A stretch of DNA of 64,000 nt, taken from assembly GCA_958295735.1 (NCBI GenBank), contig OY282369.1, positions 124,001-188,000 of the forward strand. The letters run 5' to 3'. Origin of the DNA: an uncultured Candidatus Cenarchaeum sp. GTDB taxonomy: Archaea > Thermoproteota > Nitrososphaeria > Nitrososphaerales > Nitrosopumilaceae. The notes under the pieces are model-generated. The model saw only the letters and a program-made list of their open reading frames with translations, ran no database searches and was not told the DNA's origin. Made by a program: the position numbers and the translations under genes. Positions 21,372 through 57,448 of the stretch are shown piece by piece (position 1 is the first letter of the stretch; each line of letters starts with the position of its first letter).

Positions 21372-21375
21372 GAAG

Positions 21376-27393: not shown

Positions 27394-30300
27394 ATGGGGG
27401 CGAAAAGCCGGGGGGGCGGCCGCGGGGCGGGGGGCGGCCGCGGCGTCGGGATCGGGGAGCTGGCGAGGATCTACGCGGAGGCGGTGGAGGCCGCCGACAA
27501 GCGCAAGATCGGCGCGGCGGTGCGGTCCGGCGCCGCGCCGGAGCCCGGGGACGACGAGGCCGTGGAGCGCGCCCTCGCGCCCTGCTGGGCGGCGTTCATG
27601 AACCACGCGGAGTTCGCGCTGGACACGAGCCCCGGGGGCCGCGAGAAGCGCCGCTCGCTGGAATCCATCTGCAGGAGGAGCTTCTGCATCATGGAAGGGC
27701 GCCGCGTGCCCGACGGGCCGAGGGCGGCGTCCTCGCACGTCCTGGCGCTGCTCGCGTACTCCCACATGGGGGAAAGGCCGGAGGACATGCGGCGCTACCT
27801 GGCGGACGGGGCGAACGCGCGCGCGTGGGACGCCGTGGCCGCGGAGGGGGCGGGCCGGGTCGGCCGCCTCGCGACGGGCATCCTCCTGGCCGTGATGCAC
27901 ATGGCCAGGGGGAACGAGGGGGATCTCGGGCGGGCCGAGGGGATCCTGGAAGGGCTGGAAGGCGGCGGGGCGGCGGGCGCCGGCGGGGCGGCGGGCGCCG
28001 GCGGGGCGGCGGGCGCCGGCGGGGCGGCGGGCGCCGGCGGGGCGGCGGGCGCCGGCGGGGCGGCGGGCGCCGGCGGGGCGGCGGGCGCCGGCGGGGCGGC
28101 GGGCGCCGGCTGGCTGGAGGTGCTGCGCCGCCTGGCAGAGTCGGCGCGGCTGGTCTGCGCGCACGCCCGGGACGGGAGCCCGGCGGACGTCGAGGGCCGC
28201 CTGGGCCAGCACGCCGAGAAGGCCGCCGAGGCCCTCGAGGGCGAAGGGCCGAGCGAACTGGGCGCGACCACTATAGTGCTGCGGCACGTGCTCCTGAAGA
28301 TGGCGCGGAACTCGCCGTGGACGCTGGCGCGGCGGGCGGGGGGCCGGCCCGGCGAGTTCGCCGCGATGCTGGCCGGATCGGGGGGCCGCGGCCCCGCCAT
28401 GCCCCACCCGCAGAGGCTGGCGCTGCTGGAAGGGGGGATACTCGATCCCGCCCGCGCGGCCGCCGCGGTGGCGATGCCCGGGCAGGAAGGCGGGGCGAGG
28501 GTCGCCGAGTTCCGCATCCTGCAGGCGCTCGAGTCCGCGCGGGGCGGCACCGCCGCCTACGTCGTCCCATCCGAGGCGATGCTCGGCCGCGTAACGGCGA
28601 GGCTGAGGCGCGATCTCGGGGCCCCGCCGCTGGGCGTGGCGGTGGAAAATGCCGACGGGGCGCCGCGCGCGGGAGGGCCGGCGGGGGCCGATCCCGGCGG
28701 GGCCACGGCGGACGTCCTGGTGGCCACGCCGGGGAGGCTCCTCGCGATGCTGCGGCATCCCGGCGGGAAGCTCGCGGGATCGCTCGCGCTGGTCGTGGCG
28801 GACTGGGCGCACGGGACGGGGGGCGCCGGCGGGCTCGGCATGGAGCTGCTGCTCGCGGAAGTGAGGCGCGACTGCCCGCGGGCCGGCATCCTCGCCATGG
28901 TCCGGTCCGCGCGGGATGCCCGCGGGATAACGGGATGGCTGGATCCCGGCGGCCCGCCGGCGATCGGCCCGGATCCCGACTGGCGGCTGGGCGACCGCGC
29001 CGTCGGGCTGTGCGCCGCCGAGGACGGCGGGGGCCCGATCGGGGCGATCTTCAGGCCGCTGGCGGCGGGCGCGTGGACCGCCCACGCGGATGCGGGGTTC
29101 CGCGCGGGATCGGCCGGCCCGTTCTGGCGGCCCGCGGGCGGCGCCGGGTGGTCCAGGCGCGCGGCGGCCGCCCTGTTCGCGGCGCGGCTCGATCCGCCCG
29201 GGGGGGCGCTGGTGCTGGGGCGGGATCCGGGCCAGGCGTGGGAGATCGCCGAGATGATGTACCGGAACCTGCCGGAACTGGAGCCGGACGCGGGGAGGTC
29301 GCTGGCCGCGAGGCTCGTCGGGGGCGAGCTCGGGGCCGGCTTCCCGCTCGCCAAGTACCTCGGCAGGGGCGTCGGCGTGTACCATTCCGGCATTCCCGCC
29401 GAGATGGGGGAGCTCATGGTGGGGCTCATGGAGGGCGGCGGCCTCCGGGCGCTGGCGGCCACGACGGACGCGGCGCGGGAGATCGACTTTCCGGTTCCCG
29501 CCGTCGTGATGGCGTCGCGCTCGCGCCGCGGCGGGCCGATGCCGCCCGGCGAGTTCTGGAGCCTGGCCGGCAGGGCCGGCCGGCCCGGCCGGCCGCCCAT
29601 CGGGGTGGTGGGGCTGGCCGCGAGGAACCGCGCCGACGCGGACGGGTGGGTCAAGTACGTCGGCAGGGCCGCCTACGCGCGGCAGGCCCCGGCCCTGCGG
29701 CGGATGGTGCGCGGGGCGCTGGGGGGAAAAGGCGGGATGGACCTGCGGCGACTGGCGGAGGGGGGCGGCGACTGGGCCGCCCTCGCGCGGTACGTGGGGC
29801 GCGCGGCGGGCCGGGCCGCCGGCCCCCGGCGGGCCGCCGAGGAGGCGGGGGCCGCGCTGCGGCGGACGTACGGGTACCGCGGGCTGAACGGGCGGGAGCG
29901 GGATGCCCTCGAGGCCGCGGCCGGGAGGTACGCGGGGCGGGCCGGCTGGGACTCTGCCGCGGAGCGCATCTCGGATGCGACCGGCTTTTCCCCGGAGGCG
30001 CTCGGAAAAGCGGCTCGCGCGCTGGAATCGGCGGGCATCGGGCGGGGCGACTGGAATGCGGGCATCATGTTCGCGCCCGGATCGGGGAAACTGCGGGCCC
30101 TCCTGGAGGCCGTGCGGTCGATTCCCGAGGCGCGGAGGGACCTGGAGATCCCCGCGGCGGGGCGGGCCGCCCCGATCGGGGAGATCTGCGGGATGGTGTC
30201 GGACTGGGTCTCGGGCAGGGGGATCGCGGAGATCGCGGCGGCCCGCTTCGGGGGGAAGGGGGCGGGGCAGGTGGCCGAGTGCGTGGAGGGCGTGCGGAGG

Positions 30301-30648
30301 GCGGCCGGCGCGGTAGCCAGGGGGATGTCCGCCGTCCAGGGGATGCCGGGGTCTGGGCTCGACGCGGGCGCGGGCGGGGACGGGGGGGCGCTAAGCCTGC
30401 CGGCCATGGCGTACCACGGCGTGGGCACGGAGGAGGCCGCCATAATGCGCAGGCACGGCGTGCCCAGGGGGGCCGCCCCCAGGGTGGGCGAGGCGTACGC
30501 GCGGGAGCGGCGCGGGATCCGCGGCGGCTCCGGCATCATGCGGTGGCTGGAGGGGCTGCCGGGCGACGCGTGGCGGCCGGGTTCCGGCTCCGCCGTGTCG
30601 GGCGCGGACTACAAGGAGGTCTGGCGCAGGCTGGCCGGCGCGGGCTGA
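27394..30648 (+). CDS. Degenerate Ski2/Hel308-like SF2 helicase, paralogue 3
   Basis: 1,084 aa from ATG 27,394. Same architecture as the other paralogues, but the N-domain contains a low-complexity insert of GGAAGA repeats (about residues 191-238) encoded by an 18-bp tandem repeat. Motif I is essentially gone (MPGQEGGARVAEF); motif Ib is VLVATPGRLL; motif II is D470-W-A-H; motif VI is SLAGRAGRPG, the closest to canonical GRxGRxG in the DWAH group. The C-terminus ends GADYKEVWRRLAGAG, a family hallmark. It directly follows paralogue 2. Likely a non-hydrolysing or weak ATPase; role unknown, defence inferred from location. Confidence 0.93.
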   Translation: MGAKSRGGGRGAGGGRGVGIGELARIYAEAVEAADKRKIGAAVRSGAAPEPGDDEAVERALAPCWAAFMNHAEFALDTSPGGREKRRSLESICRRSFCIMEGRRVPDGPRAASSHVLALLAYSHMGERPEDMRRYLADGANARAWDAVAAEGAGRVGRLATGILLAVMHMARGNEGDLGRAEGILEGLEGGGAAGAGGAAGAGGAAGAGGAAGAGGAAGAGGAAGAGGAAGAGGAAGAGWLEVLRRLAESARLVCAHARDGSPADVEGRLGQHAEKAAEALEGEGPSELGATTIVLRHVLLKMARNSPWTLARRAGGRPGEFAAMLAGSGGRGPAMPHPQRLALLEGGILDPARAAAAVAMPGQEGGARVAEFRILQALESARGGTAAYVVPSEAMLGRVTARLRRDLGAPPLGVAVENADGAPRAGGPAGADPGGATADVLVATPGRLLAMLRHPGGKLAGSLALVVADWAHGTGGAGGLGMELLLAEVRRDCPRAGILAMVRSARDARGITGWLDPGGPPAIGPDPDWRLGDRAVGLCAAEDGGGPIGAIFRPLAAGAWTAHADAGFRAGSAGPFWRPAGGAGWSRRAAAALFAARLDPPGGALVLGRDPGQAWEIAEMMYRNLPELEPDAGRSLAARLVGGELGAGFPLAKYLGRGVGVYHSGIPAEMGELMVGLMEGGGLRALAATTDAAREIDFPVPAVVMASRSRRGGPMPPGEFWSLAGRAGRPGRPPIGVVGLAARNRADADGWVKYVGRAAYARQAPALRRMVRGALGGKGGMDLRRLAEGGGDWAALARYVGRAAGRAAGPRRAAEEAGAALRRTYGYRGLNGRERDALEAAAGRYAGRAGWDSAAERISDATGFSPEALGKAARALESAGIGRGDWNAGIMFAPGSGKLRALLEAVRSIPEARRDLEIPAAGRAAPIGEICGMVSDWVSGRGIAEIAAARFGGKGAGQVAECVEGVRRAAGAVARGMSAVQGMPGSGLDAGAGGDGGALSLPAMAYHGVGTEEAAIMRRHGVPRGAAPRVGEAYARERRGIRGGSGIMRWLEGLPGDAWRPGSGSAVSGADYKEVWRRLAGAG
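27964..28110. repeat. 18-bp coding tandem repeat in paralogue 3
   Basis: About eight exact copies of GGCGGGGCGGCGGGCGCC, encoding (GGAAGA)n. Absent from the other six paralogues. In-frame length variation is expected. Confidence 0.9.
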
Positions 30649-32152: not shown

Positions 32153-35100
32153 ATGGGGGCGAAGGGAGGGCCGGGGGGCCGCCGCGGCATCGGGGCGGCG
32201 CGGCGCCCCCCCGCCGCGGCGGGGCCCGGCGGAAAGGGCGGCGCCGCGGGGGGGCGGCTGTGGAGCGACTACCGGGCGGCGGTAGTAGCCTCCGACAAGG
32301 CCAGGATCAACTGGGCGGTGCGGCCCGGCGCCGCGCCCGGGCCGGGGGATGCCGCGGCCGTGGAGCGCATCCTCCCGAAATTCGCCGGGGCGCTCGCGCT
32401 GCACATGGAGCTGGGGCAGTACCTGGATCCCGCGCCGTACTCGGGCAGGGATGTCCGCAGGTCGAGCCGCGACATCGCCGGCGTGTGCAGGGAAGGCTTC
32501 CGCTTGGCGGCGGCGCTCCCCCTGCCCGGCGAGCCGCGGAAGATGTCCCTGCACGTCCTGACGGTCCTCGCGTACGCCTGCGCGGGGGAAAGGCGGGAGT
32601 GGATTCGGGGCTACCTGGAGGCGAACGGGAACGCGTGGGACGCCGCGGCCCCGGGGAAGGCGGGCGGGAACGCCCGCGCGCTGGCGGCCGTGTACGAGGC
32701 CGTGCTGCTCATGGCCAGGGGGGGCGCGGGGGATCTCGAGCGGGCCGCGGGGATCCTGGAAGGGGCGTCGGGGGGTGAATGCCCCGGGCCGGGGAGGGGG
32801 AAGGACGCGGCCTCCCGCGAGCTCTACTCGCTGCGCCACCTGGCCAGGGCGGCGGAGCTGGTCTGCGAGCACATGCGGCGCGGGAGCCCGGAGGACGCGG
32901 GGGAGCACGCGGACTCGCACGTGCTGGGGGCCCTGTCCTACTACGAGGGGTCGATGCGCGTGGATGCCCCGTCCAACAGGAAGGGGTCGACGGAGGTGGA
33001 CGCGATCGCCGGGGCGCTGAGGCCCGTGCTCGGGACGATGGCGGCGGACCCGGCGGGGCGGCGGGGCGGGAGGCCGCGCGGGCCGGCCCGCGGGTCCGCC
33101 GTGGCCGTGCTGCCCGCTCCCGCCCGCAGGACGGGGGCGGCCGTGCCCCGGATAGCGAGGGCGCTCGAGTCCGTTCGGGGCGGCACCGCGGCCTACGTCG
33201 TCCCCACGGAGGCGCTGGCCGGCCGCGTGGCGGCGAGGCTGAGGCGCGATCCCTGGGCCCTGCGGGCGGGCGCGGTCGTGGAGAACGCCGGCGGGGCGCC
33301 GTCCCGCCCGGGGGCGGGCCCCGGCGGGATCCGCGCGGACGTCCTGGTGGCCACGCCGGAAAAGATGCTCGAGATGCTGCGGCGGCCGGGAGGAAAGCTC
33401 GCGGGGTCGCTCGCGCTGGTCGTGGCGGACTGGGCGCACGGGATGGGGGGCGCCGGCGGGCTCGGCCTGGAGCTGCTGCTCGCGGAGGTGAAGGACAGCT
33501 GCCCGCGGGCCGGCATCCTCGTCATGTGCCAGTCCGCGCGGGATGCCCGCGGGATGGCGGAGTGGCTGGATCCCCGCCGCCCGAGGGCGATCGTCCCGGA
33601 TCTCGACGTGCGGCAGGGCGAGCGCGCGGTCGGGCTGTGCGGCGGCTCGGTCGGCAGGCGCGGGATCCAGGCGATCTTCATCCCGGTGCCGACGGGCGCG
33701 ATGACCGCCTGCGCGGAGGCGGAGTTCCGCGCCGGGCCGCCGGGCCCGTTCGCGCTGCCCCCTGGCCGCGCCGGGCGGTCGGGCCGCGCGACGGCCGCCC
33801 TCTTCGCGTCCAGGCTCGATCCGTCCGCGAGCGTGCTGGCGCTGGGGCGGGATCCGGGCCAGGCGTGGGAGATCGCGGAGATGATGCTCCGGAACCTGCC
33901 CGAACTGGAGCCGGACGCGGGGAGGGCGCTGGCCGCGAGGCTCGCGGAGGGGGAGCTCGGGGCCGGCTTCCCGCTCGCCAAATGCCTCGGCAGGGGAATC
34001 GGCGTGTACCATTCGGGAATCCCCGACGAGATCGGGGAGCTCATGGTATTGCTGACGGAGGGCGGCCGCCTCCGCGCGCTGGCGGCCACGACCGAGATCG
34101 CGCGGGAGATCGACTTTCCGGTGTCCGCCGTGGTGCCGGCGTCGCGCCGGTACCGCGGCGCGCCGATGCCGCGGGGCGAGTTCTGGGACCTGGCCGGCTG
34201 GGCCGGCGGGATCGGCGCGGCGCCCGTGGGAGTGGTGGGGCTGTCCTCCGGGAGCAGGGACGATGCGGTCAAGTGGATCAAGTACGCCGGGGCGCCGGCC
34301 AGGCGGCCGGCCTCGGCCCTGCCGGGGATGGTGCGCGGGGCGCTGAAGGAGGGGGGCGGGGGGATGGACCTGCGGCGGCTGGCCGAGGGGGGCGGCGACT
34401 GGGCCGCCCTCGCCCGGTACGTGGGGCGCGCGGTGGGGCGCGCGGCGGGCCGGGACCCCGGGCGGGCCGCCGAGGAGGCGGGGCTCGCGCTGCGGCGGAC
34501 GTACGGGCACGGCATGCTCCGGCCTCCGGAGCGGGAGGCCCTCGAGGCAGCGGTCGGGAGGTACGCGGGGCGGCCCGGCGGGGACCCGCGCCCCCCCGGC
34601 GCGGGCGGCCTTTCCCCGGAGGCCGGGGCGGCGCGCGCGCTGGAGTCGGCCGGCATCTGGCGGGGCGGCCTGGACGCGAAAAGCCTGTTCTCGCCCGCGG
34701 CGGAAAAGCTGCCGGCCCTCATGGGGGCGATCGGGTCCATACCGGAGGTGCGGAGGGACCTGGAGGCCGCCGCGCCGGGCCGGGCCGCCGCGGGGGAGGA
34801 GATCTGCGGGACCGTGCGCGACTGGGTCTCCGGCAGGGGAATCGGGGAGATCGCGGCGGCCCGCTTCGGGGGCCGGGGCGCGGGGGAGGTGGCCGCGTGC
34901 GTGGAGGCCGTGCGGGGGATAGCCGGCGCGGCGGCCCGGGGGACGGCCGCGGCCATGGAGCAGTGGCCCGGCGGGGGCGTGGAAAAGGGGGCGCCCGACC
35001 TGCCCGCCATGATCCACTACGGCGTGGACACGGACGAGGCCGTCGTGATGCGCAGGCACGGCGTGCCCAGGGGGGCCGCGCCCAGGGTGGGCGAGGCGTT

Positions 35101-35263
35101 CGGGCGGGAGGCGCGGGAGATCCGCGGCAGCTCCGGCATCATGCGGTGGCTGGAGGGGCTGCCGGGCGCGTCGTGGGGCCCCACGTCCGGCTCCGGCGTG
35201 TCGGGCGCGGACTACAAGAGGGTCTGGCGCAGGCTGGCCGGCGCGGCCCCCGGGGACGACTGA
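32153..35263 (+). CDS. Degenerate Ski2/Hel308-like SF2 helicase, paralogue 4
   Basis: 1,036 aa from ATG 32,153. Closest to paralogue 6. Both lack about 35 residues just before motif I: the other copies' MARNSxWTLARRAGGRPGxF...PQxLALLxGG segment, including the Q-motif-like PQ, is replaced by MAADPAGRRGGRPRGPARG (near residue 295). Motif I is LPAPARRTG; motif II is D426-W-A-H; motif VI is DLAGWAGGIG, losing both arginines of GRxGR. Together these make it one of the most eroded copies. Ends LAGAAPGDD. It is divergent from the GPYS-domain/antitoxin-like pair, with a short 12-bp repeat between them. The 3' flank (35,264-35,345) is shared with paralogue 5. Confidence 0.92.
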   Translation: MGAKGGPGGRRGIGAARRPPAAAGPGGKGGAAGGRLWSDYRAAVVASDKARINWAVRPGAAPGPGDAAAVERILPKFAGALALHMELGQYLDPAPYSGRDVRRSSRDIAGVCREGFRLAAALPLPGEPRKMSLHVLTVLAYACAGERREWIRGYLEANGNAWDAAAPGKAGGNARALAAVYEAVLLMARGGAGDLERAAGILEGASGGECPGPGRGKDAASRELYSLRHLARAAELVCEHMRRGSPEDAGEHADSHVLGALSYYEGSMRVDAPSNRKGSTEVDAIAGALRPVLGTMAADPAGRRGGRPRGPARGSAVAVLPAPARRTGAAVPRIARALESVRGGTAAYVVPTEALAGRVAARLRRDPWALRAGAVVENAGGAPSRPGAGPGGIRADVLVATPEKMLEMLRRPGGKLAGSLALVVADWAHGMGGAGGLGLELLLAEVKDSCPRAGILVMCQSARDARGMAEWLDPRRPRAIVPDLDVRQGERAVGLCGGSVGRRGIQAIFIPVPTGAMTACAEAEFRAGPPGPFALPPGRAGRSGRATAALFASRLDPSASVLALGRDPGQAWEIAEMMLRNLPELEPDAGRALAARLAEGELGAGFPLAKCLGRGIGVYHSGIPDEIGELMVLLTEGGRLRALAATTEIAREIDFPVSAVVPASRRYRGAPMPRGEFWDLAGWAGGIGAAPVGVVGLSSGSRDDAVKWIKYAGAPARRPASALPGMVRGALKEGGGGMDLRRLAEGGGDWAALARYVGRAVGRAAGRDPGRAAEEAGLALRRTYGHGMLRPPEREALEAAVGRYAGRPGGDPRPPGAGGLSPEAGAARALESAGIWRGGLDAKSLFSPAAEKLPALMGAIGSIPEVRRDLEAAAPGRAAAGEEICGTVRDWVSGRGIGEIAAARFGGRGAGEVAACVEAVRGIAGAAARGTAAAMEQWPGGGVEKGAPDLPAMIHYGVDTDEAVVMRRHGVPRGAAPRVGEAFGREAREIRGSSGIMRWLEGLPGASWGPTSGSGVSGADYKRVWRRLAGAAPGDD

Positions 35264-37975: not shown

Positions 37976-40900
37976 GTGGCGGATGCGGACTATGCCCTGG
38001 CGGAAATGGCCGACAGGACGAGCGCGGGAGCGAGGGACGATGCCGTCAGGTCCAGGATCGGAAAGGCGGTGCGGCGCGGCGGCGCGGCGGGGCCCTGGGA
38101 TGCCGATGCCGCGGAAGAGGCCGCCATGCACTACGAGATGGCGACGATCGGGCTGTGGAAGTTCGCGCTGGACGAGAGCCCGGAGGGCCGCGAGAAAAAC
38201 CGCGCGTTCGTCCGCGCGTGCCGGAAGTGCTTCGGCATGATGGAGGCGTGCCCCGTGCCCGGCAATCCGGTGCACATGATCTCGCACGTCATGAGCATGC
38301 TCGCGTACGCCCGCATGGGGGAAGACCCGGAGGGCGCGAGGCGCTACCTGAAGGAGAACGCGCGCGCGTGGGACGTCGGGGCCGCGGCGGAAGCGGGCTG
38401 GAACGCGCGCGTGCTGGCGGGCATCTACCTGGCCGTGCTGCGCGTGGCCGGGAGGGAGACCCGGGAGGATCTCGAGCGGTCCGCGGGGATCGTGGAAAAA
38501 CTGAGGGAGGAGCGGAAGGCGCGCGAAAAGGAGTACTTTGCGGGCATGCGCGGCGGGGACAAGCGCGGGGCCGCCCACGAGCTCGCCTCGCTGTACCACC
38601 TGGCAGAGTCGGTGGAGGCGGTCGGCGCGTACGTGCGGGACGGGAGCCCCGCGGACGTCGAGCCGCGCCTGGACGCGAGCTTTCGGGAGGCCAGGGCCCA
38701 CAGCAGCGCCGCCGGAACCAGGGAGCTGGACATACTGCTGTCCGTCCTGCACCCCGCGTTCAAGAAGATGGCGCGCGACTCGCCGTGGGCGCTGGCGCGG
38801 CTGGGCGGCAGGCCGGGCGACTTCGCCAGGATGGTGGCCGAATCGGGCAGCCCCGCATCCGAGCTGCCCCACCCGCAGAGGCGGGCGGTGCTGGAAGGGG
38901 GGCTCCTCGATCCCGCCCGCGGGGCCGTCGTGGTGAACATGCCCGCGTCGAGCGGCAGGACGACGATGGCCGAGTTCCGCATCCTGCAGGCGCTCGAGTC
39001 CGCGCGGGGCGGCACGGTGGCGTACGTCGTCCCCGCCGGGGCGCGGGTCGGCCGCATCGCGGCGAGGCTGAGGCGCGATCTCGGGGCGCCGCCGCTCGGC
39101 GTGCGGGTGGAAGAGGCGGGCGGGGCGCCGCACGTGGACGGCCTCGACGAGGAGGCGGCCTCGGGCGGGGCCGGCGCGGACGTGCTGGTGGCCACGCCGG
39201 AAAAACTGCACATGTTGATGCGGCATCCCGGCAGCAGCCTCGCGGAGTCGCTCGTCCTGGCCGTGGTGGACGGGGCCGACGGCATGGACGGGAAGCGCGG
39301 GCTCGCCCTGGAGATGCTGCTCTCCGCCATAAAGCGCGACTGCGCGCGGTCGAAGATCCTCCTCATGGCCGCGCCCGTGCCCAACGGCCGCGAGGTAGCC
39401 GAGTGGCTGGATCCCCAGAACTCGCTGTCGATCGGCGCGGATATCGACCGGCAGGCGGGCGATCGCGTCGTGGGGCTGTACCGCGCCGAGTGCCGCGGGA
39501 GCTCGATCGAGGCGTTCTTCAGGCCGCTGGCGACGGGCGCCGGGACCGCTTACGTGGACGAGGAGTTCCGCGCCGGATCGGCGGGCGGGCTCGCGCTGCC
39601 CGCGGGAAACGCCCTGGACGCGAGGCACGCGCTGGCCTCCCTGCTGGCGGCGCAGTTCGATCCGTCCCGGAACCTGCTGGTGCTGGGGCGCGGCCCCGGC
39701 GAGGCGTGGAAGATGGCTGAACTGATCTGCCAGAGGCTGCCCGAACTGGAGCCGGACGAGGAGAGGCTGCTGGCGAGGAAGTTCGTCGCGAGCGAGCTCG
39801 GGGCCGGCTTCCCGCTCGTCGGGTACCTCGGCAGGGGCGTCGGGGTATACCACGCGGGCCTGCCGGGCGAGGTCGGGGAGCTGATGGAGCACCTGATGGA
39901 AGCCGGCCGCCTCCGGGTGCTGGCGGCCACCGCCGACGCGGCGCGGGGGGCGAGCTTTCCGGTATCCGGGATGATCGTGGCGTCCCGCTCGTGCCGGGGC
40001 GCGGAGATGCCGGCCCGCGACTTTTGGAACCTGGCGGGCAGGGCCGGCCGGATCGGCGGGGCGCCGATCGGGGTGGTGGGGCTGGTGGCGGGGGACGACT
40101 GCGGCGCGGCCGGGGAAGCCGAGTACGTCAAGGGGGCCGCCGGGGTGATGACTTCCGCCTTGGCGGGGATGGTGCGCGGGGCGCTGGAGGGGGGCGGGGC
40201 GCTGGACCTGTCGCGCCTGGCGGGGGCCGACGCCCGCTGGTCGATCTTCGCGCAGCACGTGGCGCACGCGAAGAGCCGGATCCCGGACCCGGGGCGGTTC
40301 GCCGGGGAGGCGGAGATCGCGCTGGGGCAGACGTACGGGTTCCGCGAGCTTTCGCGGGGGGAGCGGCGCGCCCTCGTGGGCGCCGTCGTCAGGTATGCCG
40401 AGCGGCTCGACGAGGACCCGCCCGCGTCGCGCCTCTCCGGCACGGCCGGCTTTTCCGCGGAGGCGCTCGGGGGGGCGATGCGCGCCGCGGGATCGGCGGG
40501 CATCGGGCGGGACGGCTGGAGCGCGGGGAGCCTGTTCGCGCCCGCATCGGAAAAACTGCGGGCCGTTTTGGGGGTGGCGGGGTCCATCCCCGAGGTCAAG
40601 AAGGATCTGGACGCGGCCGCGCCGGGCCGGCCGGCCGCCGACGGCGAGATCGGGGCGGTGATATCGGACTGGGTCTCGGGCAGGAAGGTGGCGGAGATCG
40701 CGGAGGCCCGCTTCGGGGGGAGCGGCGCCGAGCAGGTGACCCGGTGCGCGGAGGCCGTGCGCGGGATCGCCGGCGCGGCCGCCCGGGGGATGGCCGCCGT
40801 CCAGAGGATGCCCGGGTCGGGGCTGGATTTCGGGGGCATGACGCGGGAGCAGAGGAAGAGCGCGCTCAACCTGCCCGCCATGGTGTACCACGGCGTGGGC

Positions 40901-41128
40901 ACGGACGAGGCCGTCGTGATGCGCAGGCACGGCGTGCCCAGGGGGGCGGCGCGCCGGGTCGGCGAGGCGTACGGGCGGGAGGCGCGGGAGATCCGCGGCA
41001 GCTCCGGCATCATGCTGTGGCTGGAGGGGTTGCCGGGCGGGTCGTGGGGCCCGGGGTCGGGTTCCGGCATGTCGGGCGCGGACTACAAGGAGGTGTGGCG
41101 CAGGCTGGCCGGCGCGGGAGCGGGCTGA
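37976..41128 (+). CDS. Degenerate Ski2/Hel308-like SF2 helicase, paralogue 5
   Basis: 1,050 aa from GTG 37,976; this start aligns residue for residue with the ATG of paralogue 7, with no gap up to the shared DDAVR block. An alternative ATG is at 38,006. Motif I is MPASSGRTTMAEF (Lys replaced by Arg, near residue 327); motif Ib is VLVATPEKLH; motif II is D432-G-A-D; motif VI is NLAGRAGRIG with both arginines kept. HhH-like C-terminus with KSALNLPAM. DGAD subgroup with 1 and 7. It follows the oppositely oriented restriction-modification pair. Of all copies it and 7 keep most of the catalytic neighbourhood, but DExH is absent. Confidence 0.93.
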   Translation: MADADYALAEMADRTSAGARDDAVRSRIGKAVRRGGAAGPWDADAAEEAAMHYEMATIGLWKFALDESPEGREKNRAFVRACRKCFGMMEACPVPGNPVHMISHVMSMLAYARMGEDPEGARRYLKENARAWDVGAAAEAGWNARVLAGIYLAVLRVAGRETREDLERSAGIVEKLREERKAREKEYFAGMRGGDKRGAAHELASLYHLAESVEAVGAYVRDGSPADVEPRLDASFREARAHSSAAGTRELDILLSVLHPAFKKMARDSPWALARLGGRPGDFARMVAESGSPASELPHPQRRAVLEGGLLDPARGAVVVNMPASSGRTTMAEFRILQALESARGGTVAYVVPAGARVGRIAARLRRDLGAPPLGVRVEEAGGAPHVDGLDEEAASGGAGADVLVATPEKLHMLMRHPGSSLAESLVLAVVDGADGMDGKRGLALEMLLSAIKRDCARSKILLMAAPVPNGREVAEWLDPQNSLSIGADIDRQAGDRVVGLYRAECRGSSIEAFFRPLATGAGTAYVDEEFRAGSAGGLALPAGNALDARHALASLLAAQFDPSRNLLVLGRGPGEAWKMAELICQRLPELEPDEERLLARKFVASELGAGFPLVGYLGRGVGVYHAGLPGEVGELMEHLMEAGRLRVLAATADAARGASFPVSGMIVASRSCRGAEMPARDFWNLAGRAGRIGGAPIGVVGLVAGDDCGAAGEAEYVKGAAGVMTSALAGMVRGALEGGGALDLSRLAGADARWSIFAQHVAHAKSRIPDPGRFAGEAEIALGQTYGFRELSRGERRALVGAVVRYAERLDEDPPASRLSGTAGFSAEALGGAMRAAGSAGIGRDGWSAGSLFAPASEKLRAVLGVAGSIPEVKKDLDAAAPGRPAADGEIGAVISDWVSGRKVAEIAEARFGGSGAEQVTRCAEAVRGIAGAAARGMAAVQRMPGSGLDFGGMTREQRKSALNLPAMVYHGVGTDEAVVMRRHGVPRGAARRVGEAYGREAREIRGSSGIMLWLEGLPGGSWGPGSGSGMSGADYKEVWRRLAGAGAG

Positions 41129-41851: not shown

Positions 41852-44800
41852 ATGGGGGGGAAGGGAGGGGGGAGTGGCCGCCGCGGCAGCGGGGCGGCGC
41901 GGCGCCCCCCCGCCGCGGAATCGGGGGCGGGGCCCGGCGGAAAGGGCGGCGGCGCGGCGAAGCGGCGTGGGAAGGACTACGCGGCGGCGGCGGAGGCCGC
42001 CGACAGCGCGGTGCGGGGGTGCCTCGCGGCAAGGCGCGGGAAGGACTACCCGGCGGCGGCGGAGGCCGCCGACAAGGCCAGGATCAACTGGGCGGTGCGG
42101 CCCGGCGCCGCGCCCGGGCCGGGGGATGCCGCGGCCGTGGAGCGCGTCCTCCCGAGGTTCGCCGAGGCGCTCGCGCGGCACATGGAGCTGGGGCAGTACC
42201 TGGATTTCGCGCTGTACTCGGGCCCGGAGGTCCGCAAGGCGAGCCGCGGCATCGCCCGCGCGTGCAGGGAGGGCTTCCGCATGGCGGCGGCGCTCCCCCT
42301 GCCCGGCGAGCCGCGGAGGATGTTCCTGCACGTCCTGACGGTGCTCGCGTACGCCTGCGCGGGGGAAAGGCGGGAGTGGATGCGGGGCTACCTGGAGGCG
42401 AACGGGCGCGCGTGGGACGCCGGGGCCCCGGGGAAGGCGGGCGGGAACCGGCGCGCGCTGGCGGCCGTGTACGGGGCCGTGCTGCGGATGGCCAGGGGGG
42501 GCGCGGGGGATCTCGAGCGGGCCGCGGGGATCCTGGAGGGGGTGGGCGGCAGGGAATGCCCCTGGCCGGGGATGAGGGGGGAGGACGCGGCCTCCCGCGA
42601 TCTCTACGCGCTGCGCCACCTGGCCAGCGCGGCGTGGCTGGCATGCGAGCACATGCGGCGCGGGAACCTGGATGACGCGGGGGGGCACGCGGACTCGCAC
42701 GTGGTGGAGGCCCTGTCCTACAGCGAGTTGTCGATGTACGTGAAGGCCCCGCCCAACGCGGAGGGGTCGACGGGGCTGGACGCGATCGCCTCGGCGCTGA
42801 GGCCCGTGCTCGGGACGATGGCGGCGGACCCGGCGGGGCGGCGGGGCGGGAGGCCGCGCGGGCCGGCCCGCGGGTCCGCCGTGGCCGTGCTGCCCGCTCC
42901 CGCCCGCAGGACGGGGGCGGCCGTGCCCCGAATAGCGAGGGCGCTCGAGTCCGTTCGGGGCGGCACCGCGGCCTACGTCGTCCCCACGGAGGCGCTGGCC
43001 GGCCGCGTGGCGGCGAGGCTGAGGCGCGATCCCTGGGCCCTGCGGGCGGGCGCGGTCGTGGAGAACGCCGGCGGGGCGCCGTCCCGCCCGGGGGCGGGCC
43101 CCGGCGGGATCCGCGCGGACGTCCTGGTGGCCACGCCGGAGAAGCTGCTCGAGATGCTGCGGCAGCCCGGAGGAAAGATCGCGGGGTCGCTCGCGCTGGT
43201 CGTGGCGGACTGGGCGCACCGCATCGGGGGCGCCGGCGGGCTCGGCACGGAGCTGCTGCTCGCGGAGGTGAAGGACAGCTGCCCGCGGGCCGGCATCCTC
43301 GTCGTGGGCCAGTCCGTGCCGGATGCCCGCGGGATGGCGGAGTGGCTGGATCCCCGCCGCCCGAGGGCGATCGTCCCGGATCGCGACGTGCGGCAGGGCG
43401 AGCGCGCCGTCGGGCTGTGCAGCAGCGCGGACGGCAGGCGCGGGATCCAGGCGGTCTTCGCCCCTGTGCCGACGGGCGCGGGGACCGCCCGCGCGGGGGC
43501 GAGGTTCCGCGCCGGGCCGCCGGGCCCGTTCGCGCTGCCCCCGGGCCGCGCCGGGCGGTCGGGCCGCGCGGCGGCCGCCCTCTTCGCGTCCAGGCTGGAT
43601 CCGCACGCCGGCGTGCTGGCGCTGGGGCGGGATCCGGGCCAGGCGTGGGAGATCGCGGAGATGATGCGCCGGAACCTGCCGGAACCGGAGCCGGACGCGG
43701 AGAGGTCGCTGGCCAGGAGGCTCGTCGAGGGGGAGCTCGGGGCGGGCTTCCCGCTCGCCGCGTGCCTAGGCAGGGGCGTCGGCGTGTACCATTCCGGCAT
43801 TCCCGCCGAGATCGGGGAGCTCATGGTATTGCTGATGGAGGGCGGCCGCCTCCGCGCGCTGGCGGCCACTACCGAGATCGCGCGGGAGATCGACTTTCCG
43901 GTGCACGCCGTGGTGGCGGCGTCGCGCCGGTACCGCGGCGGGCCGATGCCGCGGGGCGAGTTCTGGGACCTGGCCGGCTGGGCCGGCGGGATCGGCGGGC
44001 CGCCCATGGGAGTGGTGGGGCTGGCCTCCGGGAGCAGGGCGGGGGCGACCGCGTGGACAAGGTACGTCGAGAAGGCCGCCGGGGCGCCGGCCTCGGCCCT
44101 GCCGGGGATGGTGCGCGGGGCGCTGAAGGAGGGTGGCGGGGGGATGGACCTGCGGCGGCTGGCCGAGGGGGGCGGCGACTGGGCCGCCCTCGCCCGGTAC
44201 GTGGGGCGCGCGGCGGGCCGGGACCCCGGGCGGGCCGCCGAGGAGGCGGGGCTCGCGCTGCGGCGGACGTACGGGTACGGAAGGCTCCGGCCCCCGGAGC
44301 GGGAGGCCCTCGAGGCAGCGGTCGGGAGGTACGCGGAGCGGCCCGACGGGGACCCGCGCCCCCCCGGCGCGGGCGGCCTTTCCCCGGAGGCCGGGGCGGC
44401 GCGCGCGCTGGAGTCGGCCTGCATCTGGCGGGGCGGCCTGGACGCGAAAAGCCTGTTCTCGCCCGCGGCGGAAAAGCTGCCTGCCCTCATGGGAGCGATC
44501 GGGTCCATCCCGGAGGTGCGGAGGGACCTGGAGGCCGCCGCGCCGGGCCGGGCCGCCGCGGGGGAGGAGATCTGCGGGACCGTGCGCGACTGGGTCTCCG
44601 GCAGGGGAATCGGGGAGATCGCGGCGGCCCGCTTCGGGGGCCGGGGCGCGGGGGAGGTGGCCGCGTGCGTGGAGGCCGTGCGGGGGATAGCCGGCGCGGC
44701 GGCCCGGGGGGCGGCCGCGGCCATGCGGGGGCCCGGCGGGGGCGGGGAAAAGGGGGCGCCCGACCTGCCCGCCATGATCCACTACGGCGTGGACACGGAC

Positions 44801-45028
44801 GAGGCCGTCGTGATGCGCAGGCACGGCGTGCCCAGGGGGGCCGCCCCCAGGGTGGGCGAGGCGTTCGGGCGGGAGGCGCGGGAGATCCGCGGCAGCTCCG
44901 GCATCATGCGGTGGCTGGAGGGGCTGCCGGGCGCGTCGTGGGGCCCCACGTCCGGCGCCGGCGTGGCGGGCGCGGACTACAAGAGGGTCTGGCGCAGGCT
45001 GGCCGGCGCGGCGTACCGGCGCAGGTAG
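41852..45028 (+). CDS. Degenerate Ski2/Hel308-like SF2 helicase, paralogue 6
   Basis: 1,058 aa from ATG 41,852 (promoter spacing). Very close to paralogue 4, with long identical stretches such as AGRRGGRPRGPARGSAVAVL, and the same ~35-residue deletion of the Q-motif region. Motif I is LPAPARRTG; motif II is D453-W-A-H; motif VI is DLAGWAGGIG without the two arginines. An extra duplicated segment near the N-terminus (GKDYAAAAEAAD / GKDYPAAAEAAD) sets it apart. The C-terminus is altered by a 71-bp tandem repeat: translation ends LAGAAYRRR at 45,028, whereas the ancestral end LAGAAPGDD is still readable at 45,208-45,241. Confidence 0.92.
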   Translation: MGGKGGGSGRRGSGAARRPPAAESGAGPGGKGGGAAKRRGKDYAAAAEAADSAVRGCLAARRGKDYPAAAEAADKARINWAVRPGAAPGPGDAAAVERVLPRFAEALARHMELGQYLDFALYSGPEVRKASRGIARACREGFRMAAALPLPGEPRRMFLHVLTVLAYACAGERREWMRGYLEANGRAWDAGAPGKAGGNRRALAAVYGAVLRMARGGAGDLERAAGILEGVGGRECPWPGMRGEDAASRDLYALRHLASAAWLACEHMRRGNLDDAGGHADSHVVEALSYSELSMYVKAPPNAEGSTGLDAIASALRPVLGTMAADPAGRRGGRPRGPARGSAVAVLPAPARRTGAAVPRIARALESVRGGTAAYVVPTEALAGRVAARLRRDPWALRAGAVVENAGGAPSRPGAGPGGIRADVLVATPEKLLEMLRQPGGKIAGSLALVVADWAHRIGGAGGLGTELLLAEVKDSCPRAGILVVGQSVPDARGMAEWLDPRRPRAIVPDRDVRQGERAVGLCSSADGRRGIQAVFAPVPTGAGTARAGARFRAGPPGPFALPPGRAGRSGRAAAALFASRLDPHAGVLALGRDPGQAWEIAEMMRRNLPEPEPDAERSLARRLVEGELGAGFPLAACLGRGVGVYHSGIPAEIGELMVLLMEGGRLRALAATTEIAREIDFPVHAVVAASRRYRGGPMPRGEFWDLAGWAGGIGGPPMGVVGLASGSRAGATAWTRYVEKAAGAPASALPGMVRGALKEGGGGMDLRRLAEGGGDWAALARYVGRAAGRDPGRAAEEAGLALRRTYGYGRLRPPEREALEAAVGRYAERPDGDPRPPGAGGLSPEAGAARALESACIWRGGLDAKSLFSPAAEKLPALMGAIGSIPEVRRDLEAAAPGRAAAGEEICGTVRDWVSGRGIGEIAAARFGGRGAGEVAACVEAVRGIAGAAARGAAAAMRGPGGGGEKGAPDLPAMIHYGVDTDEAVVMRRHGVPRGAAPRVGEAFGREAREIRGSSGIMRWLEGLPGASWGPTSGAGVAGADYKRVWRRLAGAAYRRR

Positions 45029-45240
45029 CCCTCCCAGACCGTAAGGACTACAAGAGGGTCTGGCGCAGGCTGGCCGGCGCGGCGTACCGGCGCAGGTAGC
45101 CCTCCCGGACCGTAAGGACTACAAGAGGGTCTGGCGCAGGCTGGCCGGCGCGGCGTACCGGCGCAGGTAGCCCTCCCGGACCGTAAGGACTACAAGAGGG
45201 TCTGGCGCAGGCTGGCCGGCGCGGCCCCCGGTGACGACTG
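44976..45240. repeat. 71-bp tandem repeat at the 3' end of paralogue 6
   Basis: ACTACAAGAGGGTCTGGCGC starts at 44,976, 45,047, 45,118 and 45,189, a period of 71 bp. Each unit carries the DYKRVWRRLAGAA coding block and then TACCGGCGCAGGTAG, which introduces the stop. 71 is not a multiple of three, so copies are out of frame with each other. The last copy runs into the original 3' end as in paralogue 4. Confidence 0.92.
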
Positions 45241-45514: not shown

Positions 45515-46255
45515 ATGGCCCGCGGTAGCGTGACCGGCGACGGATTGGCTACAGAGAAGCGGGGCCTAGTCGAGTACCTTTCCACCGGGGTGGCCGACAT
45601 GCACCACGATGTGCGAGGAAGGCAAGATCTGTAAAAGTTGCTGTCGGGAAGAGCCGCTGGCGAGTTTTGGGAAGACGGGGCGGGGAGCATAATTTTCCAG
45701 CCCGGCGCCGTCGAACCGTGGAGGATCGGAGAGACGCTTGCGGAATGCTTCCTGGAGGACCGCCAGAATGCGGAGTTTCCGTACCCGGCCTCGCGCAATC
45801 AAAAAACCGGCGGCGAGCCGGGGGCCGGCGCGGATCTGGTGGGGTACTCGGCGGGGGGCACCACATCCCTGTTCGGGGAGGTAAAGACGTCCTCGGAACT
45901 CCGGTATCCGCCCCCGGCGGCCACTGGGGGTAAGGGCACGCGCTGGCAGCTGGCCCGCCTCGCGTCGTCTGGATGCGTACGGAAGCGGCTGATTCGGTGG
46001 ATCGCATTCAATGTGTTGGAAAGCGGCGGGGACGGCCTTGAGCGCTGCAAAGCGGCGTTCGATTCCTACGCGGCCAAGAAAAAAGTCACGGCCGCCGGCG
46101 TGCTGATCAGGGACGTTCCCCCAGACAGGCGCGACATCGAGTCGGTGTTTTCGCACACGCGTGGCCACACGCGTGAAGGCACCAAGCTGGACGTGCTGGC
46201 GCTGTACCTCCCCATACCAGTCTCGGATCTTCCCCGAAGGACAGGCCTGACCTGA
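45515..46255 (+). pseudogene. PD-(D/E)XK nuclease (HamA-like position) with premature stop, 5' of paralogue 7
   Basis: One frame from ATG 45,515 to TGA 46,253-46,255, interrupted by TAA at codon 40 (45,632-45,634). A TTG at 45,638 two codons later could restart a 205-aa product holding the whole catalytic core: GETLAECFLED, then GADLVGY...LFGEVKTSSELRYPP, a D-x(n)-E-x-K PD-(D/E)XK pattern, then KAAFDSYAAKKKVTAAGVLI and TKLDVLALYLPI. The ATG of paralogue 7 follows its stop by one base, so the two are translationally coupled. A small nuclease just before a Ski2-like helicase is the order of Hachiman (HamA-HamB) and of AbpAB. Which family, if either, is unresolved. It may still be functional if translation restarts. 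Confidence 0.7.
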
Positions 46256-46256
46256 C

Positions 46257-49200
46257 ATGGAAGAAACGGGCATTTCCCTCGAAGGGTGGATTGGGAAAGC
46301 CGGCGCGGCGGCTCACGACGATGCCGTCAGGACCGGGATCAGCAAGGCGGTGCGGCGCGGCGGCGCGCCGGAACTCAAGAATGCCGAGGCCGCAGAACAG
46401 GTCGCCAGGAACTACGAGCTGGCGATGGTGGAGTTCTGGAAGTCCGCGCTGGACGCGGGCCCGGAGGACCTCGAAAAAAACCGCGCGCTCGTCCGCATGT
46501 GCAGGAAGTGCTTCGGCATGATGGAGGCGTGCCCCATACCGGGCGAACCCGCGAAGATGATCACGCACGTCCTGAAGATTCTCGCGTACGCCTACCTGGG
46601 GGAAAAATGGGAGGGCGCGAGGCGCTACCTGAAGGAGAACAAGCGCGTGTGGGACGTCGCGCCTGCGGCGGAAAAGGGCTGGGACAGACGCGTGCTGGCG
46701 CACATCTACCTGGCCATACTGCACGTGACCAGGAAGGAGACCAGGGAGGATCTCGAGCAGTCCGCGAGGATCATGGGAGAGATGGAAAAGGGGCGGGGGA
46801 CGTATGAAAAGGAGTACTTGGAAAAGACGGACGACGGAGACAAGCTCGGAGCCGCCCGCGAGCTCGCCGCGCTGTACCAGCTGGCAAAGGCGGTGGGGCT
46901 GGTCAGCACATACATGCGGGACGGGAGCCCGGCGGACGTCGAGGAACGCCTGGACACGCACTTCCAGAAGGCCGAGTTCCACAGCAGCGGCGCGGGAACC
47001 AAAGAGCTTGACATACTGCTCGCCATCCTGAATCCCGCGTTCAAGAAGATGGTCCGCAACTCGGTGTGGACGCTGGCGCGGCTGCCCGGCAGGCAGGGCC
47101 GCTTTGCCAGGATGATGATGGAATCGAGCCGTCCCGTGTTCGAGCTGCTCTACCCGCAGAGGCTGGCGATGCTGGAAAAGGGGCTGCTCGGTTCCGCCAA
47201 GGCCGTCGTGGCCAGCCTGCCCGCGTCGAGCGACAAGACGACGATGGCCGAGTTCCGCATCCTGCAGGCGCTCGAGTCCGCGCGGGGCGGCGTGGCGGCC
47301 TACGTCGTCCCCTCGGAGGCGCTGGCCAGCCAGATCACGGCGAGGCTGAGGCGCGATCTCGGGGCCCCGCCGCTCGGCGTGCGGGTGGAAAAGGCGGGCG
47401 GGGCGCCGCACGTGGACGGCTTTGAGGAAGAAATGGTCTCCGGCGAGGCCGATCTGGACGTACTGGTGACCACGCCGGAAAAACTTCACCTGCTGATACG
47501 GAGTCCGGGCAGCAGGCTCGCGGAGTCGCTCGTCCTGGCCGTGATAGACGGGGCGGACTGCATGTCTGGGGGCGCCGGCGGACTCGGCCCGGAGATGCTG
47601 CTCTCTACCATAAAGCACGACTGCGCGCGGTCGGACATACTCCTCATGGCCGCGTCCGTGCCCAACGGCCGCGAGATAGCCAAGTGGCTGGATCCCCAGA
47701 ACTCGCGGTCGATCGGCGCGGATCCCGACTGGCGGCCCGGCGACCGCGTCGTCGGGCTGTTCCGCGCAGAGGGCCGCGGGCGCTCGATCGAGACGTTCTT
47801 CAGGCCGCTGGCGACGGGCGCCTGGACCGTTTCCGCAAACGGGGAGTTCCGCGTGGGATCGGCGGACGGGTTCGCGCTGCCCGCGGGAAAGGTCAAGGAC
47901 ACAAGGTACGCGCTGGCCTCCCTGCTGGCGACGCAGTTCGATCCGTCCAGGAACCTGCTGGTGCTGGGACGCGGCCCCGGCGAGGCGTGGAAGATGGCGG
48001 ATCTCATATGCCGGAGCCTGCCCGAACCGGAGCCGGACGGGGAGAGGCTGCTGGCAAGAAAGTTCGTCGCGAGCGAGCTCGGGGCCGGCTTTCCCCTCGT
48101 CAAGTACCTCGACAGGGGAGTAGGCGTCTGCCACGCGGGCCTGCCCGACGAGGTCAGGGAGGTTATGGAGCGGCTGATGGAGGGCGGCCGCCTCAGGGTG
48201 CTGGCGGCCACGACATCCATAGCGCGGGGGATGGACTTTCCGGTCTCCGGGATAATCATGGCATCCCATTCGTACCCGAGCGCCGAGATGCCGGCCCGCG
48301 ACTTTTGGAACCTGGCGGACAGGGCCGGCCGGATCGGCCAGCCGCCGATGGGGGTAGTGGGGCTGGCCACGGGGAACCCCGACGACGGGATCGAGGCCGA
48401 GTACGTCAAGGAGGCCGCCAAAGAGCTGACGTCCGCCCTGACGGGGATGGTGCACAGGGCACTGGACGAGGCCGGGGGCGGCGCGCTGGACCTGTCGCGC
48501 CTAGCGGAAGACGACGCCGGCTGGTCGGGCTTCGCGCAGTACATAGCGCACATGAAGAACCGGATCCCTGACATGGGGCGGTTCGTCGAGGAGGCGGAGT
48601 TTGTGCTTGGGCGGACGTACGGGTACCGCAAGCTCCCGCAAAAGGAACGGCACGCCCTCGCGGACGCCGTCAGGAAGTATGCCGAACGGCTCTACAAAAA
48701 CCCGCTCGCGTCGCGCCTCTCCGGCCTTACGGGATTCTCCCCCGAGACGCTCGGGGGGACGATGCGCGCGGTGAGATCGGCGGGAATCGGGCGGGGCGAC
48801 TGGAATGCGGGGAGCCTGTTCGCGCCCGCATCGGAAAGGCTGTCGGCCCTAGTGGGAGTCATGGCGGAGTCCATCCCCGAGGTCAAGAAGAGCATGGACA
48901 TTCCCGCGTCGGGCCGGATCTCCACGGAGGGGATGGGCGGGGTGATATCGGACTGGGTCTCCGGCGTGAGAATGGCGGAGATCGCGGAGGCGCGCTTCGG
49001 GAGAAGCGGCGCGGGGCACGTGACCGAGCGCGTGGGGGCAATATGCGGGATCGCCGCCGCGGCCGCCCGGGGCATGGACGCCGTCCAGAGGATGCCCGGA
49101 TCGGGGCTGGATTTCGAGGGCATGACGCGGGAGCAGAGGAGCGCGCTCAACCTGCCCGCCATGGTGTACCACGGCGTGGACTCGGACGGGGCAGTGCTCA

Positions 49201-49529
49201 TGCGCATGTACGGCGTGCCCAGGGGGGCGGCGCGCCGGGTGGGCGAGGCGTACGCGCGGGAGGCGCGCGACGTCCGCGCGGGCGCCTCCGGCGTCCTGTC
49301 GTGGCTGGAGGAGCTGCCCGACAAGTCGTGGGGCCCGGGGTCCGGCGCAACCATGTCGGGCGCCGAGTACAAGGAGGTGTGGCGCAGGCTTGCCGGCGCC
49401 GTCCCCGCGGCAGGCGGGCGTGACCTTGAAGCCGTTCGGCTGCGCGCGCGGCCGTCCCCGCGCAGCTTGAGCGCGAGATCGGCCGCGGCGCCCGGCAGGA
49501 ACACGGCGCTGCGCCGTGCCAAGGAATAA
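46257..49529 (+). CDS. Degenerate Ski2/Hel308-like SF2 helicase, paralogue 7 (nuclease-linked)
   Basis: 1,090 aa, ATG one base after the nuclease stop. Least GC-biased of the seven and the best preserved: motif I is ASSDK327-T (LPASSDKTTMAEF), the only copy with the Walker lysine; motif Ib is VLVTTPEKLH; motif II is D431-G-A-D; motif V is ATTSIARGMDFP; motif VI is NLADRAGRIG with both arginines. The N-terminal helical domain (1-270) probably contacts the nuclease (inference from HamAB-like systems). HhH-like C-terminus with RSALNLPAM. After the family end (RRLAGAV) it carries about 35 extra residues (PAAGGRDLEAVRLR...), probably read-on past a lost stop, overlapping the next gene by 14 bp. 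Confidence 0.93.
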   Translation: MEETGISLEGWIGKAGAAAHDDAVRTGISKAVRRGGAPELKNAEAAEQVARNYELAMVEFWKSALDAGPEDLEKNRALVRMCRKCFGMMEACPIPGEPAKMITHVLKILAYAYLGEKWEGARRYLKENKRVWDVAPAAEKGWDRRVLAHIYLAILHVTRKETREDLEQSARIMGEMEKGRGTYEKEYLEKTDDGDKLGAARELAALYQLAKAVGLVSTYMRDGSPADVEERLDTHFQKAEFHSSGAGTKELDILLAILNPAFKKMVRNSVWTLARLPGRQGRFARMMMESSRPVFELLYPQRLAMLEKGLLGSAKAVVASLPASSDKTTMAEFRILQALESARGGVAAYVVPSEALASQITARLRRDLGAPPLGVRVEKAGGAPHVDGFEEEMVSGEADLDVLVTTPEKLHLLIRSPGSRLAESLVLAVIDGADCMSGGAGGLGPEMLLSTIKHDCARSDILLMAASVPNGREIAKWLDPQNSRSIGADPDWRPGDRVVGLFRAEGRGRSIETFFRPLATGAWTVSANGEFRVGSADGFALPAGKVKDTRYALASLLATQFDPSRNLLVLGRGPGEAWKMADLICRSLPEPEPDGERLLARKFVASELGAGFPLVKYLDRGVGVCHAGLPDEVREVMERLMEGGRLRVLAATTSIARGMDFPVSGIIMASHSYPSAEMPARDFWNLADRAGRIGQPPMGVVGLATGNPDDGIEAEYVKEAAKELTSALTGMVHRALDEAGGGALDLSRLAEDDAGWSGFAQYIAHMKNRIPDMGRFVEEAEFVLGRTYGYRKLPQKERHALADAVRKYAERLYKNPLASRLSGLTGFSPETLGGTMRAVRSAGIGRGDWNAGSLFAPASERLSALVGVMAESIPEVKKSMDIPASGRISTEGMGGVISDWVSGVRMAEIAEARFGRSGAGHVTERVGAICGIAAAAARGMDAVQRMPGSGLDFEGMTREQRSALNLPAMVYHGVDSDGAVLMRMYGVPRGAARRVGEAYAREARDVRAGASGVLSWLEELPDKSWGPGSGATMSGAEYKEVWRRLAGAVPAAGGRDLEAVRLRARPSPRSLSARSAAAPGRNTALRRAKE

Positions 49530-52723: not shown

Positions 52724-52940
52724 CCGGCGCGGCGGTCGCGCGGAGGCGCCCCCGGCGGCAGGCGGGTCGCAGTCATGTCATGGAACGGGAACCGGGAGCG
52801 GCGGCGCGCGGTTGCCGCGCCGCGGGGCGGGAACCGGGAGCGGCGGCAGCGCGAGGTCGGCAACCCCCGATCCGCGGGCGCGGATCCGGATCGACGAAGC
52901 AGTTTCCGCGCCTGCGGCCGGCGAGTGCGCGACCCCGTGC
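52724..52940. other. Intergenic region before IS66-like copy A
   Basis: Contains a short direct repeat GGAACCGGGAGCGGCGGC with spacing about 50 (near 52,789 and 52,840). No gene. Confidence 0.5.
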
Positions 52941-53043
52941 CGGCGGCGGTACACACTTACCTCCCCCCCCCCCTCCCGCCGCGACTTGGCCGCCCGGGCG
53001 GGCCCGCGCGCCGCGCAAGCTTAGGCTGGCCTAAGGGTCGATT

Positions 53044-53052
53044 TGTATAATT
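53044..53052 (+). promoter_or_regulatory. TATA-like box of IS66-like transposase A
   Basis: TGTATAATT about 28 bp before ATG 53,076; identical in copy B. Confidence 0.5.
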
Positions 53053-53075
53053 GTGGCGAGTTTGGGCCTGCCGGC

Positions 53076-54806: not shown

Positions 54807-55098
54807 CCGGCCCCAGCGGATCTGCCGGGCGCGCGCGGGCGGCGTCAGCCCGCGTCAGGCATCGGGACGGAGCGCCGTACCGGGGCGGCCGCGCGCCGAA
54901 AATGCCCCGAACCCTGCCGCGATCGCGCGGCGCGCGCCGATCGGGGCAGCCCGGGCGCGCGGGGGGCGGCGCCCGCCCGCCGAAGGATCCCCGCTCCGGC
55001 CGCGATCGCGCGGCGCGCGCCGATCGGGGCAGCCCGGGCGCGCGGGGGGCGCCGGGAGGGGGGGGGGAGGTAAGTGTGTACCGGCGGCGCGCGGTTCC

Positions 55099-57431: not shown

Positions 57432-57448
57432 GCCGCTGCCCGGCCGCC

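What the first reader, a model, noticed from the sequence alone, without database searches (positions are those of the whole stretch)
45515..49529. Coupled PD-(D/E)XK nuclease plus Ski2-like helicase: Hachiman- or AbpAB-like unit in an archaeon
The nuclease frame (GADLVGY...GEVKTS) ends one base before paralogue 7, the only paralogue with a Walker lysine. Small nuclease followed by Ski2-like helicase is the Hachiman/AbpAB order. The helicase motif II DGAD is unlike known HamB, so this may be a divergent type, and the six other paralogues could be orphaned HamB-like copies.
Basis: partly seen in the sequence, partly recalled or inferred. Interest (0 to 1): 0.82.

Follow-up and report, generated by a model that had tools for sequence, protein, structure and literature searches.

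The report
Decayed Hachiman-like defence pair, dead helicases
The nuclease and helicase genes are a real pair that belongs to an untested candidate virus-defence family related to Hachiman, but in this archaeon the helicase has lost its ATP-splitting motif, the nuclease gene carries a premature stop, and the dead helicase has been copied into nine versions.

Summary
A 205-aa D-(D/E)XK nuclease frame (45638-46255 +) ends one base before a 1090-aa Ski2-like helicase (46257-49529 +, "p7"), the only one of nine paralogues in this genome with a Walker lysine. Both genes match PADLOC candidate PDC-M23: M23A 2e-43 and M23B 2e-271. In all five loci found in four related genomes the nuclease lies directly before the helicase. 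PDC-M23 is Hachiman-related: p7 hits HamB profiles (3e-41), and a true HamA hits the M23A profile (1e-6). So a Hachiman-like unit is right in kind, though PADLOC already lists the family, and AbpAB fits poorly.

Intact relatives carry PTSSGKT and DEAH; p7 has PASSDKT and DGAD, and all nine paralogues lack the catalytic Glu. The tree puts that loss before the duplications. The nuclease keeps its catalytic residues, but an in-frame TAA at 45632 cuts a homologous N-terminus. The paralogues still keep frame (39 of 41 indels are multiples of 3; omega about 0.4).

Best reading: a decayed HamAB-type unit that can no longer fire by ATP-driven nuclease release, whose ATPase-dead helicase was amplified and kept as a non-catalytic protein. 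Nothing was tested biochemically.

The parts
45515..45631 (+). N-terminal 39 codons of the nuclease gene, in frame with the rest but cut off by TAA at 45632-45634
   Evidence: adds 16 bits to the family profile over the core alone; 0 of 200 shuffles reach it; also the tblastn hit through the stop and the profile matches
45632..45634 (+). in-frame premature stop TAA in the nuclease gene
   Evidence: reported as '1 TAA' inside the match
45638..46255 (+). nuclease core (PDC-M23A, HamA-like): conserved GETLAE, GAD, GEVK; 205 aa from an internal TTG
   Evidence: PADLOC PDC-M23A 1.8e-43; residues invariant in relatives
46257..49529 (+). p7: Ski2-like helicase (PDC-M23B) with degraded Walker A (PASSDKT) and motif II (DGAD); the last ~40 aa have no homology and no codon periodicity
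10479..13613 (+). paralogue p1, ATPase-dead (PGPA-RAL, DGAD)
24210..27299 (+). paralogue p2 (homologous part), ATPase-dead (DWAH)
27463..30648 (+). paralogue p3 (homologous part), ATPase-dead (DWAH)
32264..35263 (+). paralogue p4 (homologous part), ATPase-dead (DWAH); 93% DNA identity to p6
38012..41128 (+). paralogue p5 (homologous part), closest copy to p7 (69% aa), PASSGRT and DGAD
42038..45028 (+). paralogue p6 (homologous part), ATPase-dead (DWAH)
44974..45225 (+). ~71-bp direct repeats of the 3' end of p6 between p6 and the nuclease
   Evidence: sequence; 99.4% self-match

Best explanation
The pair descends from a Hachiman-type two-gene defence unit of the PADLOC candidate family PDC-M23. 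The intact form should work like HamAB: the Ski2/Hel308-like helicase (M23B) holds the D-(D/E)XK nuclease (M23A) in check and, on meeting damaged or foreign DNA, uses ATP to release it (inferred from HamAB). In this archaeon the helicase most likely lost its catalytic Walker-B glutamate before it was duplicated, and Walker A is degraded in every copy, so ATP-driven release is most likely no longer possible. The nuclease keeps its active site, but a premature stop removes an N-terminal segment conserved in the family. The dead helicase then spread to nine in-frame copies, eight of them without a nuclease. Those copies evolve fast but under residual constraint, which fits non-catalytic protein-binding or DNA-binding roles or slow decay. 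Shown: family, gene order, motif losses, stop codon, tree, frame retention. Inferred: loss of ATPase and defence function, and any scaffold role.
For: PADLOC PDC-M23A 1.8e-43 and PDC-M23B 1.6e-271; HamB profiles 3.2e-41. A Pfam-verified HamA (L045, PF08878 1.5e-15) hits PDC-M23A at 1.4e-6. The nuclease is directly before the helicase in G189, G013 (two loci), G502 and G326. Intact M23B proteins have PTSSGKT and DEAH; all nine copies here lack the Glu. p7 is basal in the tree with support 100/100, so a single loss on the stem is the simplest reading. In-frame TAA within a homologous region. Frame retention: indels 39/41 multiples of 3 over four disjoint pairs, GC3 0.88-0.97 against GC2 0.51-0.64, omega 0.37-0.50 under GY+F3X4. 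In HamAB, the HamB D431A mutation and the HamA E138A/K140A mutation each abolish defence (PMC12278908).
Against: p7 keeps the Walker lysine, the motif II Asp, RAGR in motif VI, a short branch, ordinary base composition and 74% of family-invariant residues, so some activity cannot be excluded. The TAA may be an assembly error, or TTG at 45638 may be a working start. The GC-rich paralogues could be mere decay, since NG86 dN/dS is near 1.
Confidence: 0.72

Rival explanations
1. The unit still works as a divergent Hachiman-like system: p7 binds ATP through its lysine, an unusual motif II still supports switching, and the 205-aa nuclease starts from the TTG at 45638, just after the TAA.
For: The nuclease catalytic residues GAD and GEVK are kept. 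p7 is the least changed copy and keeps K, D and RAGR. The one-base gap keeps the genes coupled. Neighbouring genes are defence genes: REase_II, MTase_II, dCTP deaminase.
Against: The Walker-B Glu and Walker-A Gly invariant in relatives are both replaced, and the motif VI glycine is also changed. The nuclease N-terminus is cut.
Confidence: 0.13
2. All nine helicases and the nuclease are decaying pseudogenes; the open frames persist because stop codons are rare at 75-80% GC.
For: NG86 dN/dS near 1. GC2 of the copies is 0.55-0.64, above most ordinary genes. Premature stop in the nuclease.
Against: Almost all indels are multiples of three (p about 1e-16 against one third), strong GC3 over GC2 periodicity, and omega about 0.4 with a composition-aware codon model. 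Homology runs in one frame over about 1000 residues in every copy.
Confidence: 0.12
3. The p1-p6 copies are functional decoys or locks: inactive helicases that bind the nuclease or a viral inhibitor without being able to fire. (This is one possible form of the non-catalytic role left open in the best explanation.)
For: The helical N-terminal region (the place of the HamA-binding domain in HamB) is retained in all copies, and in-frame amplification followed loss of the Glu.
Against: No interaction evidence. There is a single nuclease copy, itself damaged, and the N-terminal region is not better conserved than the rest.
Confidence: 0.1

Closest known systems
PADLOC candidate PDC-M23 (M23A nuclease, M23B helicase)
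   Same: Both proteins match full-length or core profiles with very strong E-values; same order and strand; adjacent
   Different: The window helicase lacks the catalytic motifs of intact members, the nuclease has an internal stop, and there are eight extra helicase copies. No PDC-M23 paper was found in the held library
Hachiman HamAB
   Same: Small D-(D/E)XK nuclease before a Ski2-like helicase with an N-terminal helical region; p7 matches HamB profiles and solved HamB (8vx9, 2e-17 alone; 7e-35 with the family profile)
   Different: The nuclease does not reach the Pfam HamA cut-off; motifs I and II are broken; true HamA-HamB pairs occur separately in the same archaeal family (L045)
AbpAB
   Same: Nuclease plus Ski2-like helicase
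   Different: AbpA has an extra N-terminal Cap4-like nuclease and an inactive HamA-like half (PMC12278908); the window nuclease is one domain with its active site kept; AbpB scores only 25 bits
Hel308 and Brr2/Ski2 helicases
   Same: Closest solved folds and motifs of the helicase core
   Different: Housekeeping helicases without a nuclease partner; this genome has separate weaker matches at C1:254134, 1055936 and 1592141
Pseudohelicases such as Utp25 (PMC9539457, title and abstract start only)
   Same: Helicase fold kept without catalytic motifs
   Different: Ribosome assembly factor, no known link to defence

Membership tests
PDC-M23 (PADLOC) | Nuclease protein matching PDC-M23A | tested here: met
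   1.8e-43, residues 24-201 to profile 78-257 of 263; N-terminus interrupted by TAA
PDC-M23 (PADLOC) | Helicase protein matching PDC-M23B | tested here: met
   1.6e-271 over 18-1047
PDC-M23 (PADLOC) | The two genes adjacent on one strand | tested here: met
   one-base gap; same order in five loci of four other genomes
PDC-M23 (PADLOC) | Intact ATPase motifs as in relatives (PTSSGKT, DEAH) | tested here: not met
   PASSDKT and DGAD
Hachiman | HamA: Pfam PF08878 above cut-off | tested here: not met
   window nuclease no hit at E<=1; relative G189 0.013, 15.7 bits against 25; none in this genome
Hachiman | HamA-like nuclease by remote homology | tested here: inconclusive
   true HamA hits PDC-M23A at 1.4e-6; hhalign E 0.008 but probability 5% over the 63-column catalytic core; nuclease model too poor to search
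Hachiman | HamB-type Ski2-like helicase | tested here: met
   HamB profiles 3.2e-41; 8vx9_B
Hachiman | Active helicase motif II | tested here: not met
   DGAD; catalytic Glu absent
Hachiman | Helicase binds nuclease through the N-terminal helical domain and restrains it | not testable with these tools
   only a helical prediction for residues 8-289; hhalign to HamB-like N-terminal regions weak
Hachiman | Antiviral protection | not testable with these tools
   needs a challenge assay
AbpAB | AbpA: Cap4-like N-terminal nuclease fused to an inactive HamA-like half | tested here: not met
   single 205-246 aa domain with GAD and GEVK kept

The most novel reading that the evidence does not exclude
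A sensor helicase of a Hachiman-type system lost ATP hydrolysis, and the dead form was then amplified into a nine-member family of in-frame pseudohelicases, seven of them in an archaeal defence island, serving a non-catalytic role such as locking the remaining nuclease or acting as decoys for viral inhibitors.
Probability: 0.22. Interest if true: 0.65.

Novelty: new variant of a known kind. Interest (0 to 1): 0.45.

Why it matters
It links the untested candidate PDC-M23 to Hachiman with sequence evidence and shows the pair is conserved in archaea. It also gives a clear case in which the ATPase of a defence helicase was apparently lost before the gene was amplified. If the copies are made and have a role, they would be pseudohelicases derived from an immune sensor. 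If not, this is a well-resolved record of how a nuclease-helicase defence decays in a GC-rich archaeon.

Tried and rejected
AbpAB was rejected as the closest match. A divergent active DGAD type was rejected because intact relatives have DEAH. Nuclease remnants before the other paralogues: none found. Relatives in viral contigs, phages, plasmids and GTDB contigs: none found. Structure prediction of the nuclease alone gave pLDDT 33 and was not used. The p7 model from seven own sequences is poor (pLDDT 47.5); only its helical N-terminal region is fairly confident, and the fold search returned Hel308 at 5e-5 without good superposition. NG86 dN/dS was unreliable at 95% GC3, so a codon model was used; omega for the relatives was saturated and not used.

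Full report
Observation. The nuclease frame at 45638-46255 (+) encodes 205 aa with GADLVGY and GEVKTS. It stops one base before the ATG of a 1090-aa helicase at 46257-49529, here called p7. p7 hits Pfam DEAD (8.8e-14) and is the only one of nine paralogues with a Walker lysine.

Family. Pfam and NCBIfam give nothing for the nuclease. PADLOC gives PDC-M23A (1.8e-43) for the nuclease and PDC-M23B (1.6e-271) for p7, so both match a single two-gene defence candidate. No paper in the held library names PDC-M23. p7 also hits HamB profiles (3.2e-41), solved HamB 8vx9 (2e-17) and Hel308 (8e-20). With a family profile HamB scores 123 bits and AbpB 25 bits. A true HamA from the same archaeal family (L045:4333-5130; PF08878 1.5e-15) hits PDC-M23A at 1.4e-6, and an intact M23A hits Pfam HamA weakly (0.013). 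M23 is thus a relative of Hachiman; strict HamA membership was tested and not met.

Relatives. Searches of 200 genomes of the family and 398 of the phylum found M23A in four other genomes: G189, G013, G502 and G326. In five loci the nuclease lies directly upstream of M23B on the same strand. In G013:C270 the nuclease is broken, and in G326 the helicase is truncated.

Motif loss. The four intact M23B proteins have PTSSGKT and DEAH. p7 has PASSDKT and DGAD. The other eight have PASSGRT/DGAD (p5), PGPA-RAL/DGAD (p1), PAPCGRT/DWAH (p2), PGQEGGA/DWAH (p3), PAPARRT/DWAH (p4, p6), PAPD-RIA/DGAG (e1) and PAPA-RIA/DGAR (e2). None keeps the catalytic Glu; all keep the first Asp. The tree places p7 at the base of the nine, then p5, p1, (e1,e2) and (p3,(p2,(p4,p6))), mostly with full support. 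One loss of the Glu before the duplications is the simplest history. Base composition differs strongly among rows and may bias branch lengths. In Hachiman, HamB D431A abolishes defence and ATP drives activation of HamA (PMC12278908). By analogy p7 should not fire; this step is inferred.

Nuclease. The catalytic core is kept: GETLAE-, GAD- and GEVK-type motifs, with the key acidic residues and the lysine invariant in relatives. Relatives are about 270 aa. In the window the homology continues upstream in the same frame to about ATG 45515 but is cut by TAA at 45632-45634. The 39 residues before the stop raise the profile score from 127 to 143 bits, and none of 200 shuffles reaches that. A TTG at 45638 could start a shortened protein. 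An assembly error cannot be excluded without reads.

Array. Nine helicases: seven on the + strand between 10.5 and 49.5 kb and two at C1:3116256-3122521. Only one nuclease was found in the genome, and no nuclease remnants lie at the other copies. The copies have GC3 0.94-0.97 and GC2 0.55-0.64; p7 has 0.88 and 0.51. Across four disjoint pairs 39 of 41 indels are multiples of three. NG86 dN/dS is near 1 but ignores the extreme composition; GY+F3X4 gives omega 0.42 for all nine, 0.50 for p2/p3/p4/p6 and 0.37 for p1/p5/p7. The frames are thus maintained with weak constraint on the residues. The last 40 aa of p7 have no homologue and no codon periodicity, as if the original stop was lost.

Setting. 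The window is a defence island: a type II REase-like protein (15924-17900 +), DNA methylases (18383-19510 - and 36303-37121 -) and a dCTP-deaminase-type defence protein (19902-21371 +). A defence origin is therefore plausible. The genus relative G001 (2.0 Mb) has no M23.

Verdict. The pair is a damaged member of a Hachiman-related candidate defence family, not a new type defined by DGAD. The unusual part is the amplification of an already ATPase-dead helicase into nine in-frame copies. Whether these have a role or are slow decay is open.

Noticed in passing
15924-21371: GHKL-type type II restriction enzyme, N6/N4 methyltransferase and a defence dCTP-deaminase next to the helicase array: a defence island.
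   Followed up: partly
36303-37121: Second DNA methylase (272 aa) between p4 and p5 with much lower GC3 (0.60), probably recently acquired.
   Followed up: no
52930-55088 and 57443-59601: 98.7% identical inverted pair of 2.16 kb carrying IS66-type transposase ORFs.
   Followed up: no
2878-3813 and 5808-6301: 102-bp period repeats; the first block encodes TPR units.
   Followed up: no
21355-23505: Two ~1.2 kb direct copies at 94% identity, with a third partial copy.
   Followed up: no
L046:1243-5339: HamB/M23B-like helicase in G002 preceded by a 317-aa protein with a GE..D..ExK-like pattern that matches no HamA profile: possibly a third Hachiman-related pair.
   Followed up: no
L027:5418-6150: In G013 a second PDC-M23 unit has a broken nuclease but an intact helicase (PTSSGKT, DEAH).
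   Followed up: partly
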